Part shown: in pieces, positions 39,601 through 61,147 of the stretch
Position numbering within the stretch: position 1 is the stretch's first letter
Layout: every line of letters begins with the position of its first letter
NCBI GenBank assembly: GCA_017417055.1
Contig: JAFPZX010000095.1
Coordinates: forward strand, 1 to 61,147
DNA length: 61,147 nt
Origin: Anaerolineaceae bacterium
GTDB lineage: Bacteria > Chloroflexota > Anaerolineae > Anaerolineales > Anaerolineaceae
Direction of reading: 5' to 3'
Made by a program: the position numbers and the translations under genes
Notes under the pieces: model-generated
Told to the model about the DNA's origin: nothing
The model's database searches: none
Seen by the model: the letters and a program-made list of their open reading frames with translations, nothing else

Positions 39601-39627
39601 GGGACAGTCCCATAAAGGGACAGTCCC
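39601..39627. repeat. GGGACAGTCCC...GGGACAGTCCC palindrome
   Basis: Two copies of the self-complementary GGGACAGTCCC are separated by ATAAA. It lies between metG and the metallopeptidase gene, in both cases outside coding sequence. Confidence 0.7.
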
Positions 39628-48464: not shown

Positions 48465-48493
48465 GGGGACTGTCCCTTTATGGGACTGTCCCC
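48465..48493. repeat. GGGGACTGTCCC...GGGACTGTCCCC palindrome
   Basis: The inverted repeat GGGGACTGTCCC / GGGACTGTCCCC with TTTAT between lies between the DUF1232 gene and the ornithine cyclodeaminase-like gene. Read on the minus strand it is downstream of the latter gene, but no T-run follows. Confidence 0.7.
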
Positions 48494-57128: not shown

Positions 57129-58226
57129 ATGAGTTACACATACGCACAGCAGAAAAAACATGGTTCCCAAAAACACGGAGCGGAGCCGCACGCCGGCGGG
57201 GAGACCGAATTCTCCCTCCCCAACAGCGCTATGGTAGAGAACCTGGGGCATCAGGTCGATATGCCCGTGGTGATGCGCGAGAAGATGGAAGGTGCCTTCG
57301 GCATGGATCTCTCTGCCGTGAAGCTCTATGAGAACAAGGCCGTAGGTGAGGCCGGAGCAGAAGCCGTCACGCAGGGCAGCAATATCGCCTTCGCACCGGG
57401 CAAGCTGGACTTTTCCTCAACACACGGTCAAGCGCTTCTGGGGCACGAGATCTCCCACGCCGCATCCCAGGCAAAGGGGGAAGTGAAGGGCAGCGGGCTT
57501 GTGAACGATTCCGCTCTCGAAGCCCGTGCCGACCGGGAAGGCCTGATGGCAGCCCGCGGGGAAAGCGTCGCAGATGGCTACGGCGGTGCCTCTGCGCCGC
57601 TCTCAAGCGCCTCTGCCGTCTCCGCTGCAGGCCCGATGCAGGCTAAATCCGGAAAGAAAGAGGCGGAGGAGCCGAAGTCTAAATTGCAGCCAGAATTAAT
57701 CACTGAAGCTGAGATAGAGAAGACAGAGAATGGAGAGAAAAAATCCCGTGTGCCATATACCGCTCCGAGTCTGGGAACAAGGCTAAAGAACTATTTTAAA
57801 AATGTCCTGTTTCAGCCGCACCCAATAGCGTTTTTTGAAGAGCCATTAAGCGTGCGTGAGAGGATGAGTTATGAAAATAAACACATGTGGGACACATACG
57901 ACGCGGATGAAGATGCCAAGATAGATAATTATAAAGAAACAGATAACGTGTTCAAGAAAAACGCCGGATTAGAGCATGTTTATAATTTGGGAAGACATGA
58001 TCCTGATACCGGTAATAGTTTGATCTATCCGGAAAACCATAAGCGCTATGTGAATCCGTATAAACAAATAGGAGATATCGACGATATTGATACACAACTT
58101 GAAGTAATCGAGGATCCAGATGAGAATGAGGAAGAAAATGGAGAGAATTTAATTCAGATTCCGTCACATAATAAGAAGTTGGGAGATTTTAAGAAATTCG
58201 AAGAGGAAGTAGAGAATTTAATTTAA
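57129..58226 (+). CDS. DUF4157 (eCIS-core) protein, paralogue 1
   Basis: The 365-residue protein has a DUF4157 module in residues about 25-115: SLPNSAMVENLGHQVDMP, FGMDLSAVKLYENKA, AFAPGKLDFSS, and the zinc-protease motif LLGHEISHAASQA (HEXXH). ALEARADREG about 35 residues later could supply the third ligand. After an Ala/Ser-rich stretch ending GPMQAKSGKK (about 165-175) the sequence turns acidic and AT-rich with no domain I recognise. There is no signal peptide. GAGGTG eight bases before ATG 57129 fixes the start. DUF4157 occurs in cargo or effectors of contractile injection systems and in toxins; that role here is inference. Confidence 0.82.
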   Translation: MSYTYAQQKKHGSQKHGAEPHAGGETEFSLPNSAMVENLGHQVDMPVVMREKMEGAFGMDLSAVKLYENKAVGEAGAEAVTQGSNIAFAPGKLDFSSTHGQALLGHEISHAASQAKGEVKGSGLVNDSALEARADREGLMAARGESVADGYGGASAPLSSASAVSAAGPMQAKSGKKEAEEPKSKLQPELITEAEIEKTENGEKKSRVPYTAPSLGTRLKNYFKNVLFQPHPIAFFEEPLSVRERMSYENKHMWDTYDADEDAKIDNYKETDNVFKKNAGLEHVYNLGRHDPDTGNSLIYPENHKRYVNPYKQIGDIDDIDTQLEVIEDPDENEEENGENLIQIPSHNKKLGDFKKFEEEVENLI

Positions 58227-58270
58227 GTATGACGAAATGCCAAGAAAAAGCAAAAAAGCGCCAAGACTAA

Positions 58271-58417
58271 GACTTTTGTTACTATACATGGTTTTGTGGG
58301 TTTCTGGCTAAGCTTATGCTGATGCTGTTCAATCAAGGCAGAACTGAGGACGCCAACCGGGCCGCAGCGGACCCGGAATATCGGAATAAACTTTATCAGG
58401 AATTCCAAATCGCCTGA
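58271..58417 (+). pseudogene. Possible 3' remnant of an unidentified gene
   Basis: A short open frame ends LFNQGRTEDANRAAADPEYR then NKLYQEFQIA and stop (58415-58417). The composition looks protein-like and resembles the tail of some recombination-promoting nuclease/transposase families, but I am not certain of that. No start or ribosome-binding site is visible, so it would be a decayed 3' fragment. Confidence 0.3.
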
Positions 58418-58439
58418 TTGAACCCAAGAGAGGATTTGC

Positions 58440-58655
58440 GGGGACTGTCCCTTCACGGGACTGTCCCCGCAAAAATGAATAGCAATGAGATGGGGACAGT
58501 CCCATGAAGGGACAGTCCCCGACAGGATTCTTTACACCATTTGATGATGGGGACGGACCTGAAGGACAGCCCCGTTGGCTGGCGTATGAATAATAGTCCC
58601 CCGACAATGCGTGAGGACAGTTCCCCTCGGCTGACGCCTCGGGCGAACCGTCCCC
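58440..58655. repeat. Cluster of four GGGGAC-type palindromes
   Basis: Members are at 58440-58468 (GGGGACTGTCCC/GGGACTGTCCCC), 58492-58520 (GGGGACAGTCCC/GGGACAGTCCCC), a degenerate one at 58549-58573, and 58613-58655 (GAGGACAGTTCCCC/GGGCGAACCGTCCCC). The second is preceded by AAAATGAATAGCAATGAGAT, a phrase that recurs before the palindromes at 60705 and 60741. Confidence 0.7.
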
Positions 58656-58855
58656 GATTACCCGCCGTCCCCTCGGAATTATATGTCAGATATCAAAACG
58701 GGATATGAAAAATACGGAAACTATGCTAAAATAAAATATCCGGGTAAAATTACAGTGAGCGCAATATGATAACATCGTAAGCGCAGACCAGTATTATCTA
58801 TTGGGTACAGGCCCGCAAGCAGTCCGGTTCATGGAAAATAAATATGAGGTGTTAA

Positions 58856-60388
58856 ATGAGTTACACTTACGCACAAGCGAAAAAGAAGAACATCCAAAAA
58901 AAAGGCACGGAGACGTTCAGCGGCGGGGAGATGAAATCCACCCTTCCCAACAGCGCAATGGTGGAAAATCTTGGCCATCAGGTCGATATGCCCTCCGTGA
59001 TGCGGGAGAAGATGGAAGGGGCCTTCGGCATGGACCTCTCTGCCGTGAAGCTCTATGAGAACAAAGCGGTGGGCAAGGCCGGGGCAGAAGCCGTCACGCA
59101 GGGCAGCAACATCGCCTTCGCGCCGGGCAAGATGGACTTTACCAGCACCCACGGACAGGCGTTGCTGGGCCATGAGATCTCACACGTCGCATCCCAGGCA
59201 AAGGGCGAGGTGAAGGGCAGCGGTCTGGTGAACGATTCTGCTCTGGAAGCCCGTGCCGATCGCGAAGGCCTGATAGCAGCCCGAGGGGAAAGCGTCACAT
59301 CAGGCTATGACGGCGCGTCTGCGGCGCTCTCGAACGCTTCCGCCGCCTCCGCGGCCGGCCCGATGCAGGCAAAAAGCGGGAAGAAGAATAGAGTACATGA
59401 AGATCGTATGAGACAAATACACGAAGATAGCCTGAATGATATGAAGGCTGCAAATTACTGGTCTACCAGTGATGCGGACTTTGAAGATGAACTGGACAAA
59501 GTAGATCCGAAGATATATAAAAAACAAGAAGAACCGAAGAATATAGAAGAACCGAAGAATATAGAAGTACCGAAAAATATAGAAGTACCGAAAAATATAG
59601 AAGTACCGAAAATAATAGATGAACCGGAAATAATAGAAGAACCGGAAAATCAAAAGGAAAACGAATATACCGGAATGAAAGGTGGTTTCGGGTACTATGG
59701 GGATGAAGACTCTATCGACATGGATGAAGACCTGGAAAACGATATTAGAGAGAGAGAAAATAGGATCAAACAAGCAAACAATGACAAACAAGAAGAACAG
59801 GAAATAATAGAAGAACTGGAAGACAATAATTTAGGAGGAAATAGAGCTGAAACTGGGTACGGGTATAATGACGATGCAAACTCTTTCATAGATGAAGACT
59901 TACCAGTACCAGAGGAAGAACAACCGATTAAATATTTCCCTATGCCTCCGGGTTCTGTTTACCGACATAAAGATGGGTCGCCGATCGAGCTAATTTATTT
60001 AGAAGAACCGGAAAAGAGTTTTGGACAAAAGATAAAGGATTGGTTTAAGAGCCTATTCTCGAGCAAGAGTCCCTATCCGAGTCCTGGCTCCAACAAACCC
60101 GAAGACGTGAGGAATAGAATGAATGCGGAAATGAATTCCTTGTATTCAGGATATGAAGGACAGGCAGATGAAATCCTTGATAAGATAAATGAAACCGATG
60201 ATACTGAGTCAAAAGAAAAATTGTCAAACTATTATGAGAAAATAAAAGATGAAAAAAAGAAGAATGTTCTTTATAAATATGATCCGGAAGAAATTGACGA
60301 CGACGAGTCCCCGTACGAATGGGATCCTGAAGAAATAAAAAGAAGAGAAGAAGAGATGAGGATTTTGATTGATAATAAAGATGAATAA
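58856..60388 (+). CDS. DUF4157 (eCIS-core) protein, paralogue 2
   Basis: The 510-residue paralogue shares the N-terminal module almost residue for residue with paralogue 1 up to GPMQAKSGKK (about residue 177), including LLGHEISHVASQA and ALEARADREG. Its C-terminal 330 residues are different: six to seven Pro-Lys-Asn-Ile-Glu-type repeats (about 226-265), then long Asp/Glu-rich segments and a patch KDWFKSLFSSKS. The module is GC-rich and the tail AT-rich. GAGGTG precedes ATG 58856. After the TAA stop the same frame stays open for 18 further codons containing ENLI, which also ends paralogue 1. The present stop may therefore be a late mutation. Confidence 0.82.
   Translation: MSYTYAQAKKKNIQKKGTETFSGGEMKSTLPNSAMVENLGHQVDMPSVMREKMEGAFGMDLSAVKLYENKAVGKAGAEAVTQGSNIAFAPGKMDFTSTHGQALLGHEISHVASQAKGEVKGSGLVNDSALEARADREGLIAARGESVTSGYDGASAALSNASAASAAGPMQAKSGKKNRVHEDRMRQIHEDSLNDMKAANYWSTSDADFEDELDKVDPKIYKKQEEPKNIEEPKNIEVPKNIEVPKNIEVPKIIDEPEIIEEPENQKENEYTGMKGGFGYYGDEDSIDMDEDLENDIRERENRIKQANNDKQEEQEIIEELEDNNLGGNRAETGYGYNDDANSFIDEDLPVPEEEQPIKYFPMPPGSVYRHKDGSPIELIYLEEPEKSFGQKIKDWFKSLFSSKSPYPSPGSNKPEDVRNRMNAEMNSLYSGYEGQADEILDKINETDDTESKEKLSNYYEKIKDEKKKNVLYKYDPEEIDDDESPYEWDPEEIKRREEEMRILIDNKDE
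59531..59650 (+). repeat. 18-bp coding repeats (about 6.7 copies) in DUF4157 paralogue 2
   Basis: Six-codon units encode EPKNIE, EPKNIE, VPKNIE, VPKNIE, VPKIID, EPEIIE and a partial EPEN. Nucleotide identity between the first five units is high, indicating recent slippage-type expansion of a proline-spaced acidic linker. Confidence 0.85.
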
Positions 60389-60794
60389 AAAAATATCATA
60401 GAGAATCTAATTAAAAATTTGATAGATGATGAAGAAAATGGTTGAGAGAGTGGAAAAAACCAGAAAAGACCAAAACCACGAAATAATAGATCAGGGAGAA
60501 TTGGAAGACGAAGTGCTGGAAGAGGCACCGTCTCATATAAAGAAAGAATGAACCCTATTAATGACGGATACTCCCGATGCGCGTCACAGCAAATCCCGCA
60601 GTGTCATTAACAGTATCAGTTAATCGAGTTTGTATGCCGGGCGTACGACCACGGGGACTGTCCCTTCATGGGACTGTCCCCACGAAAATGAGCAGCAATG
60701 AGATGGGGACAGTCCCCGAAAAAATGAGCAGTAATGAGATGGGGACTGTCCCTTCACGAGACTGTCCCCAATAGGATAAAAAGGGAGGTAAGAT
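60389..60794. other. 406-base intergenic region with palindromes and decayed coding sequence
   Basis: The frame of paralogue 2 continues after its stop to TGA at 60443-60445 (18 codons). A separate 41-codon charged frame (60426-60551, MMKKMVERVEKTRKDQNHE and on) overlaps it and could be part of a former longer C-terminus. Palindromes occupy 60653-60769. GGGAGGT at 60783-60789 is the ribosome-binding site of paralogue 3. Confidence 0.45.
60653..60769. repeat. Cluster of three GGGGAC-type palindromes
   Basis: Members are 60653-60681 (GGGGACTGTCCC/GGGACTGTCCCC), the short 60705-60717 (GGGGACAGTCCCC) and 60741-60769 (GGGGACTGTCCC/GAGACTGTCCCC). The last two follow repeats of AAAATGAGCAGCAATGAGAT. 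It sits between DUF4157 paralogues 2 and 3. Confidence 0.72.
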
Positions 60795-61147
60795 ATGAGT
60801 TACACTTACTCGCAATTGAAAAAGAAAAGCAGTAAAAAGGCGGATGCAGATTCAAACGCCCGCGGGAAGCAGGAAACCTCCCTCCCCAACAGCGCAATGG
60901 TGGAAAACCTGGGGCATCAGGTCGATATGCCCACGGTGATGCGCGAGAAGATGGAAGATTCTTTCGGCATGGACCTGACGGCCGTAAAGCTTTATGAGAA
61001 CAAAGCGGTGGGCGAGGCCGGAGCCGAAGCCGTCGCGCAGGGCAGCAACATTGCCTTTGCCCCGGGCAAACTGGACTTTTCCAGCACCCACGGACAGGAG
61101 CTGCTCGGTCATGAGATCTCCCACGTCGCCTCCCAGGCAAAGGGGGA
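60795..61147 (+). CDS. DUF4157 (eCIS-core) protein, paralogue 3, cut by the window edge
   Basis: The first 117 codons are present. After MSYTYSQLKKK and a divergent basic stretch, the sequence joins the shared module (SLPNSAMVENLGHQVDMP, FGMDLTAVKLYENKA, LLGHEISHVASQAKG). The HEXXH motif is intact. Differences from the other copies are scattered (EDSF for EGAF; GQELLG for GQALLG). GGGAGGT six bases before the ATG is a strong ribosome-binding site. The C-terminal region lies outside the window, so whether it differs again cannot be seen. Confidence 0.82.
   Translation, partial: MSYTYSQLKKKSSKKADADSNARGKQETSLPNSAMVENLGHQVDMPTVMREKMEDSFGMDLTAVKLYENKAVGEAGAEAVAQGSNIAFAPGKLDFSSTHGQELLGHEISHVASQAKG

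What the first reader, a model, noticed from the sequence alone, without database searches (positions are those of the whole stretch)
57129..61147. Tandem array of DUF4157 (eCIS-core) proteins with a constant head and changing tails
Three consecutive genes share a nearly identical module of about 170 residues with an intact HEISH motif and a downstream ARADREG segment. The two complete copies then switch to unrelated acidic C-terminal regions. A constant N-terminal module with exchangeable tails is how polymorphic effectors or toxins are built. DUF4157 is known from cargo and toxins linked to extracellular contractile injection systems, but no sheath, tube or baseplate gene is in this window. 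The array continues past the right edge. It is the best candidate here for an undescribed system, for example a set of cleavable carriers delivering different C-terminal payloads.
Basis: partly seen in the sequence, partly recalled or inferred. Interest (0 to 1): 0.78.

Follow-up and report, generated by a model that had tools for sequence, protein, structure and literature searches.

The report
Injection-system cargo genes with swapped tails
A bacterium whose named relatives come from ruminant guts carries a row of genes that share one constant front end, probably an address label for a phage-tail-like injection machine encoded elsewhere in its genome, while their back ends vary and appear to have been re-paired with different front ends.

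Summary
The array is real: two complete genes and one cut off by the contig end share a 176-residue head (77-86% identical). It belongs to a family of DUF4157 (eCIS_core) proteins in gut Chloroflexota near Flexilinea. In the genus this head family occurs in 5 of 14 genomes; the CIS markers Pvc16_N and gp25 occur in exactly the same five. The two window tails are not wholly unrelated: they share a diverged 66-residue segment. Other members carry a 400-residue tail modelled as helical, a short basic tail and, in one congener, the front part of an ADP-ribosyltransferase in a gene broken by a frame change. Heads of two shared tail classes are rejected as clades (AU p 6e-9 and 4e-4), and homology ends near the gene borders, so tails have been re-paired with heads. 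Best reading: CIS cargo encoded in trans, with a constant address head and exchangeable tails. That is a known kind (DUF4157 cargo/EATs) in an arrayed, recombining variant. Toxicity, loading and cleavage are untested, and no function was found for either complete window tail.

The parts
57129..58226 (+). Copy 1 (w1), 365 aa, DUF4157 cargo-type protein, tail class B
   Evidence: same tail class in G006 contig C25 (60% over 189 aa)
57129..57659 (+). Constant head of copy 1: leader MSYTY..KK, SLPNS, eCIS_core, LEARADREG, junction GPMQAKSGKK
   Evidence: eCIS_core at 57261-57479
57444..57458 (+). HEISH zinc-binding motif of copy 1
   Evidence: translation; HE[IM]SH in 19 of 19 family members
57660..58226 (+). 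Acidic tail of copy 1, mostly low-confidence in AlphaFold2 (whole model mean pLDDT 46)
   Evidence: omega about 0.94 against its G006 counterpart
57768..57959 (+). Tail segment of copy 1 homologous to 60017-60214 of copy 2
   Evidence: blastp 30% over 66 aa, E 5e-7; 0 of 1000 shuffles
57855..57935 (+). Short motif m1 (modelled as a helix, DTYDADEDAKID) recurring in tails of this family
   Evidence: home-made HMM from six rows, this one included; all its matches among 2636 ORFs lie in this family
58439..58521 (.). GGGGACTGTCCC inverted repeat in the spacer between copies 1 and 2
   Evidence: also elsewhere in window and in other contig stretches
58856..60388 (+). Copy 2 (w2), 510 aa, DUF4157 cargo-type protein
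59171..59185 (+). HEISH motif of copy 2
   Evidence: translation
59501..59662 (+). 18-nt (6-residue, PKNIEV-like) tandem repeat in the tail of copy 2
60017..60214 (+). Tail segment of copy 2 homologous to copy 1; its first part (IKDWFKSLF) also aligns with G005_C59c
60652..60770 (.). GGGACTGTCCC repeats in the spacer between copies 2 and 3
60795..61147 (+). Copy 3 (w3), head only (117 aa), cut by the contig end just after HEISH (61110-61124)
   Evidence: contig length 61147

Best explanation
The genes encode cargo (effector-type) proteins of a contractile injection system whose structural genes lie on other contigs of the same genome. The constant 176-residue head is inferred to be the address: a short basic leader (MSYTY..KK...LPNS) that is probably read by the loading machinery, plus an eCIS_core zincin-like domain that docks the protein to the spike or tube or helps load it. 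The variable tail is inferred to be what is delivered. The family diversifies by duplication, by recombination in or next to the head, and by re-pairing of tails with heads, so lineages keep their own heads while some tails are shared across lineages. Shown here: the array, the genome's CIS, the co-occurrence, the tail classes, the head/tail conflict for two classes, and one member with an ADP-ribosyltransferase stretch. Inferred: loading, injection and activity on a target. Unknown: what the tails of the two complete window copies do.
For: Own genome has 8 eCIS_core genes; one sits inside a CIS locus with AAA ATPase, Pvc16_N and sheath. Pvc16_N is in 5 of 14 congeneric genomes, gp25 in the same 5 of 14, and the HEISH head family in the same 5 of 14. 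In G006 the locus lies on one contig; 8 of the 10 proteins given to Pfam matched CIS or phage-tail families, one of them below cut-off. The leader, also seen in two other DUF4157 families, is found in 5 of 5 CIS-positive and 0 of 6 tested CIS-negative congeners (model partly built from the same genomes). One member has PF03496 at 4.6e-7, over cut-off. Heads paired with tail class A are rejected as a clade (AU p 6e-9), class C likewise (p 4e-4). Class C tails are 96% identical in DNA between G005 and G012 (dS 0.00 over 47 codons) while their heads have dS 0.77. Homology stops near the gene borders in the gene sets examined, one pair each for A and B and three genomes for C. Heads are under purifying selection, omega 0.08-0.23 in seven comparisons. 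Published (passages): DUF4157 cargo fills the AlgoCIS tube (PMC8894135); [quoted passage not shown]
Against: No Pfam, PHROGs or NCBIfam domain in either complete window tail. AlphaFold2 gives copy 1 a mean pLDDT of 46. The tail of copy 1 evolves with omega about 0.94, so it is weakly constrained. 6 of 18 tails are only 30-51 residues. No immunity-like ORF of 60 aa or more follows the two complete window genes on their strand. The array is not on the CIS contigs. The co-occurrence rests on 14 related genomes, and the five CIS-positive ones are also the five largest. Heads do not group strictly by genome: those of G000 and G006 are intermixed. Class B shows no head/tail conflict. The only recognisable toxin stretch is in a gene broken by a frame change.
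Confidence: 0.72

Rival explanations
1. Adaptor or chaperone proteins: the head binds the CIS spike and the tails are mostly disordered docking arms for other cargo; the tails are not themselves payload.
For: 6 of 18 tails are 30-51 aa; copy 1 is mostly low-confidence; S. lividans Sle2, a DUF4157 protein, was tested for binding to spike proteins and interacts with the N-terminal region of cargo Sle1 (PMC13277306, passages); PMC11297309 suggests DUF4157 may act as a chaperone in cis or trans (passages).
Against: Class A tails are 416-447 aa and the one modelled is all-helical, mostly at pLDDT 60-86 with pTM 0.39 for the whole model; one member has an ADPrib_exo_Tox stretch; the variety of tails is more than a generic adaptor needs (inference).
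Confidence: 0.2
2. A decaying multigene family: duplicated heads with random tails, kept by repeat-driven duplication and without a current function.
For: Fragments and broken copies exist: 3 of 22 matches in the genus were fragments or carried stops, and the G013 member is split by a frame change. Tail omega about 0.94 for class B; tail dN 0.15 above dS 0.06 in one class C pair.
Against: Head omega 0.08-0.23; class A tails omega 0.34 and 0.55; 16 of 16 indels in three tail pairs are multiples of 3, and 10 of 12 in a fourth; HE[IM]SH kept in 19 of 19.
Confidence: 0.1
3. The head itself is the toxin, a zinc metallopeptidase as in VgrG2b, and the tail only aids delivery.
For: HE[IM]SH in 19 of 19 and LE[AE][RK]AD in 18 of 18 heads long enough to show it; the related VgrG2b domain is toxic in the periplasm through HEXXH (PMC6899460, passages); a DUF4157 protein, BDI_2459, was active in E. 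coli only with a periplasmic tag (PMC12210884, passages).
Against: Heads are nearly constant while tails vary; Cgo1 growth inhibition was independent of its metalloprotease motifs (PMC8894135, passages); no immunity-like ORF seen beside the complete window genes.
Confidence: 0.1
4. Self-cleaving carriers: the zincin head cuts at the invariant GPMQAKS junction and frees the tail. This is a special case of the best explanation and its odds overlap with it.
For: GPMQAKS at the head/tail border in 18 of 18 tailed members; HE[IM]SH plus a candidate third ligand (recalled for zincins) are intact; other DUF4157 families of the genus bear a [VI]Q[MLR] element after the domain, partly read by eye.
Against: No cleavage evidence of any kind; PMC6899460 could not identify a substrate cut by a DUF4157-type peptidase; the junction could equally be a linker or docking strand.
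Confidence: 0.1

Closest known systems
DUF4157 cargo of AlgoCIS, Cgo1/Cgo2 (PMC8894135, passages)
   Same: Two proteins with a similar disordered N-terminus, a central DUF4157 domain and different C-termini; cargo in the tube lumen.
   Different: Encoded inside the CIS cluster, two genes; here up to six HEISH copies per genome plus fragments, on other contigs than the CIS locus, with near-constant heads and head/tail re-pairing.
eCIS-associated toxins, EATs (PMC8213781, PMC11297309, passages)
   Same: N-terminal DUF4157, varied C-terminus, often a long linker, genome with an eCIS.
   Different: 88% of EATs in that training set lie within ten genes of the eCIS operon; here the array is on other contigs, and toxicity is untested.
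Halogeometricum DUF4157 proteins with sheath-dependent export (PMC11566945, passages)
   Same: Several DUF4157 proteins of one genome; only two of the five are placed in or beside the CIS cluster in the passages read.
   Different: Archaeal, several with downstream partner or immunity genes; no such ORF seen after the complete window genes.
Polymorphic toxin systems (PMC3482391, abstract start in a search listing; otherwise recalled)
   Same: Constant N-terminal trafficking part, recombining C-terminal parts.
   Different: No downstream immunity genes seen; no known toxin domain in most tails examined here.

Membership tests
eCIS_core / DUF4157 (PF13699) | Profile match over the curated cut-off | tested here: met
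   62-66 bits against 22 for the three window copies
eCIS_core / DUF4157 (PF13699) | HExxH motif | tested here: met
   HE[IM]SH in 19 of 19 HEISH-family members
eCIS-associated toxin (EAT) | Genome encodes a CIS | tested here: met
   Sheath, Pvc16_N, AAA on C138 and gp25 on C135. Tube profile PF06841 not found in own genome, in a search whose controls did not ring either; found in G006
eCIS-associated toxin (EAT) | Within about ten genes of the CIS operon (usual, not obligatory) | tested here: inconclusive
   Window contig has no match to sheath, Pvc16_N or gp25 and ends in the array. In G006 the CIS stretch seen is at 24-44 kb of the 286-kb contig C2 while the arrays are on C20 and C25
eCIS-associated toxin (EAT) | Loaded into or secreted by the CIS | not testable with these tools
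   no proteomics available
eCIS-associated toxin (EAT) | Toxic C-terminal domain | tested here: inconclusive
   No known domain in the window tails; ADPrib_exo_Tox stretch in one congeneric member whose gene is broken
Polymorphic toxin system | Constant head with C-termini exchanged by recombination | tested here: met
   AU tests reject head clades for tail classes A and C, not for B; tail dS 0.00 against head dS 0.77 for one class C pair
Polymorphic toxin system | Immunity gene directly downstream | tested here: not met
   For the two complete window genes: on the + strand from 58227 to 60794, outside copy 2, one search lists no ORF of 60 aa or more that fits. One 65-aa ORF (60577-60774) reads the palindromic repeats; one (58801-59058) overlaps the start of copy 2 in another frame. 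Shorter ORFs were not listed; two - strand ORFs (77 and 92 aa) lie in the first spacer
Standalone mobile element (phage or plasmid gene) | Close relatives on phages or plasmids | tested here: not met
   No phage record; no relative among 65 pattern-matched viral stretches; 6 of 72,556 plasmid records, all under 60% identity and only over residues 42-147 of copy 1

The most novel reading that the evidence does not exclude
The head is a self-cutting, reusable loading handle. It carries the tail to the injection machine, and the zincin site (HExSH plus the Glu of LEARAD) cuts or is gated by the invariant GPMQAKS junction, releasing short or disordered tails into target cells, possibly gut microbes or protozoa. 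New tails are tested by recombination onto the lineage's own heads. The target is speculation.
Probability: 0.1. Interest if true: 0.75.

Novelty: new variant of a known kind. Interest (0 to 1): 0.47.

Why it matters
The role of DUF4157 in CIS cargo is called unknown or elusive in papers read here (PMC8213781, PMC11297309; passages). A family with near-constant heads, an invariant junction and naturally re-paired tails separates head from tail as a natural domain-swap set. It predicts which part is the address and where the border lies. It also points to CIS cargo in gut Chloroflexota; the one search made for 'contractile injection' with 'Anaerolineae' listed a single sponge-microbiome paper.

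Tried and rejected
Rejected: the two window tails being wholly unrelated. Rejected: a missing injection machine. Rejected: a phage or plasmid element. Contamination as the link between array and CIS was considered (the assembly is 5.5% contaminated), but the same pairing recurs in four other assemblies. Strict homogenisation of heads within each genome was my first idea and is not borne out: only the four G005 heads form one group (94/92, just under the tool's mark for firm support), G012 heads need two changes, and G000 and G006 heads are mixed in one firmly supported group.

Rows dropped: 3 of the 22 genus matches (a short fragment in G006, a copy with stops and a 52-residue fragment in G005) were left out of the family of 19. 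G006_C20c and G013_C3 were left out of the structure alignments (17 of 19). The leader model used 13 of the 34 leaders listed and one more, all from genomes in which it was then searched, so its positives are partly circular. Only 6 of the 9 CIS-negative congeners were given to that search.
Full report
Observation. One search lists the three + strand genes at the reported place: 365 aa (57129-58226; the listed ORF is longer, and the ATG at 57129 is chosen by likeness to the others), 510 aa (58856-60388) and a 117-aa piece (60795 to the contig end). The window is the whole contig C191 of a 4.4-Mb, 200-contig, 85%-complete assembly. Heads are 85.8% identical between copies 1 and 2 over 176 aa, and 82% and 77% against copy 3 over 117 aa. 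All three pass the Pfam cut-off for eCIS_core. This is far beyond chance. Copies 1 and 2 share a 66-residue segment (30%, E 5e-7 against a set of four tails; score 96, best of 1000 window shuffles 93). Copy 2 carries extra sequence, including six-residue repeats, between head and shared segment. The tail of the fourth own-genome copy (C145) does not align significantly by this test with copy 1 or copy 2 (200 and 366 of 1000 shuffles reach the score).

The organism and the missing machine. Nine loci with the same head in named genomes are all Chloroflexota MAGs: two are Flexilinea sp. from goat jejunum, seven are uncultured Chloroflexi 'RUG' isolates (RUG as rumen is recalled). The own genome has eight eCIS_core genes: three here, one more with the same head on C145, three of other families (C104, C195, C153), and one on C138 between an AAA ATPase and Pvc16_N with a sheath gene beside them. 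The locus runs off the end of C138; gp25 is on C135, with genes there resembling the G006 spike and baseplate proteins by eye, not by profile. In G006 the locus is on one contig. Of ten proteins given to Pfam, eight matched: Baseplate_J, gp25, spike, CIS_tube/LysM, gp19-type tube (one over and one below cut-off), sheath and Pvc16_N; a 1171-aa and a 122-aa protein did not. Its DUF4157 gene is recognised by blastp and its AAA ATPase by eye. The gp19 tube profile was not found in the own genome; the controls of that search did not ring either.

Co-occurrence. Of 14 congeneric genomes, the HEISH head is in 5, Pvc16_N in the same 5, gp25 in the same 5, and eCIS_core over cut-off in the same 5 (2 further genomes have matches below the cut-off). 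The sheath profile is in those 5 plus one other genome, where I take it for a phage gene (not tested). If the genomes were independent, an exact match would have a chance of 1 in 2002; they are not, and the five are the five largest. In the wider set (101 genomes), ten genomes outside the genus have weaker matches (best E 2e-13), read here as other DUF4157 proteins. A model of the shared N-terminal leader finds 7-16 matches in each of the 5 CIS-positive genomes and none in 6 of the 9 CIS-negative ones at E up to 1, with the circularity noted under Tried and rejected.

The family. Nineteen members were compiled (22 matches less 3 fragments). HE[IM]SH is in 19 of 19 and LE[AE][RK]AD in 18 of 18 heads long enough to show it. 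The head ends in GPMQAKS in all 18 tailed members. Tails by blastp: class A in three genomes (41-60% over 410-440 aa), class B in two (copy 1 and G006_C25b, 60% over 189 aa), class C, a 44-47-aa basic tail, in three genomes, and others. A short motif (m1) recurs in class A, class B, copy 2 (weakly, E 0.08 and 0.25 per site), G012_C178, G005_C59c and G012_C1a (E 0.005). A home-made model of it, built on six rows, matched only this family among 2636 stop-to-stop ORFs of the fetched stretches. One G013 member has ADPrib_exo_Tox at 4.6e-7, 29.8 bits against a cut-off of 23.4, covering profile positions 9-88 of 196. That gene stops soon after, and a 215-aa ORF follows in another frame with no Pfam or NCBIfam match. 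It may be a real break or an assembly error.

Head and tail have different histories. In a codon tree of 19 heads the deepest split separates G000+G006 heads from G005+G012+G013 heads (99/98). The four G005 heads form one group (94/92), although two of their tails belong to classes A and C, shared with G000, G006 or G012. G000 and G006 heads are intermixed. Forcing the class A heads into one clade is rejected (p-AU 6e-9), class C as well (p 4e-4); class B is not in conflict. For the class C pair G005/G012 the tail has dS 0.00 over 47 codons while the heads have 0.77; for G006/G005 the tail has dS 0.06 and dN 0.15, the heads dS 0.46. These stretches are short, and nucleotide-level constraint is not excluded. 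DNA homology begins shortly before the start codon and ends at the stop codon for one pair each of classes A and B and for the three class C genes, apart from about 40 nt after the stop shared by G012 and G006. Upstream of the genes only the ribosome-binding region looks alike, by eye. The genes therefore sit in unrelated immediate surroundings (400-700 nt examined).

Selection. NG86 omega is 0.08-0.23 for heads in seven comparisons, 0.34 and 0.55 for class A tails and 0.94 (5-95% 0.70-1.35) for the class B tail. Indels are multiples of three in 16 of 16 gaps of three tail pairs and 10 of 12 of a fourth; the fifth pair has none. Reading frames are kept, but the copy 1 tail is fast-evolving.

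Structure. The model of copy 1 has mean pLDDT 46. The class A model (mean 61.9, pTM 0.39) has an all-helical tail, mostly at pLDDT 60-86, without a convincing fold match.

Literature (passages only, unless noted). DUF4157 as a core eCIS domain, found at the N-terminus of many putative toxins, with long linkers: PMC8213781. EAT features, and DUF4157 as possible chaperone: PMC11297309. Tube-lumen cargo with shared N-termini and different C-termini: PMC8894135. Sheath-dependent export of five DUF4157 proteins: PMC11566945. DUF4157 protein co-eluting with CIS baseplate proteins: PMC11126660. DUF4157 partner of a cargo: PMC13277306. A DUF4157 cargo candidate active only with a periplasmic tag: PMC12210884. 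DUF4157 among export domains of alarmone synthetases: PMC12691689. DUF4157-type peptidase as T6SS toxin: PMC6899460. The general idea is therefore known. The arrayed constant-head form with head/tail re-pairing is what I file as the new variant.

Conclusion. Most likely the window holds CIS cargo genes, encoded away from the machine, with a constant address head and exchangeable tails. That they are toxins is plausible but not shown for the two complete window copies.

Noticed in passing
L012:4675-6675 (-), L014:8536-10323 (-) and relatives in four other genomes: A second DUF4157 cargo-like family with the same leader and a tail holding a second HELGH...E zincin-like motif (recognised by eye; no Pfam match beyond eCIS_core in the two own-genome members).
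   Followed up: partly
L011:11447-14170 (-), L154:521-3343, L155:572-3175: A third, large DUF4157-type family with hydrophobic glycine/alanine-rich stretches; two members (L154, L155) are not in the eCIS_core listing but keep a HEL[VS]HT motif and PNSVMREM-like repeats in the leader.
   Followed up: partly
L014:14003-17203 (-): A 1066-aa protein near a DUF4157 gene, without a Pfam family over cut-off, with a GFYDRNCTTFV stretch that looks by eye like a catalytic site.
   Followed up: no
window 39601-39627, 48465-48492, 58439-58521, 60652-60770 and stretches of other contigs: Dispersed GGGACTGTCCC palindromic repeats, also between the array genes; possible recombination or REP-like element.
   Followed up: partly
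L091:11460-12791 (-), L090:4883-5451 (-): Small toxin-antitoxin-like gene pairs (by eye) lie between or next to HEISH genes in G005 and G006.
   Followed up: no
L097:6127-9642, L098:14373-18701, L099:13776-19184, L156:3-3704: A CIS-locus protein of very different length between species (1171, 1442, 1802 aa) with a conserved start; no Pfam match in G006. The own-genome piece on C135 reads as long VEKQAVKATP...DTIQREPVKT-like repeats.
   Followed up: partly
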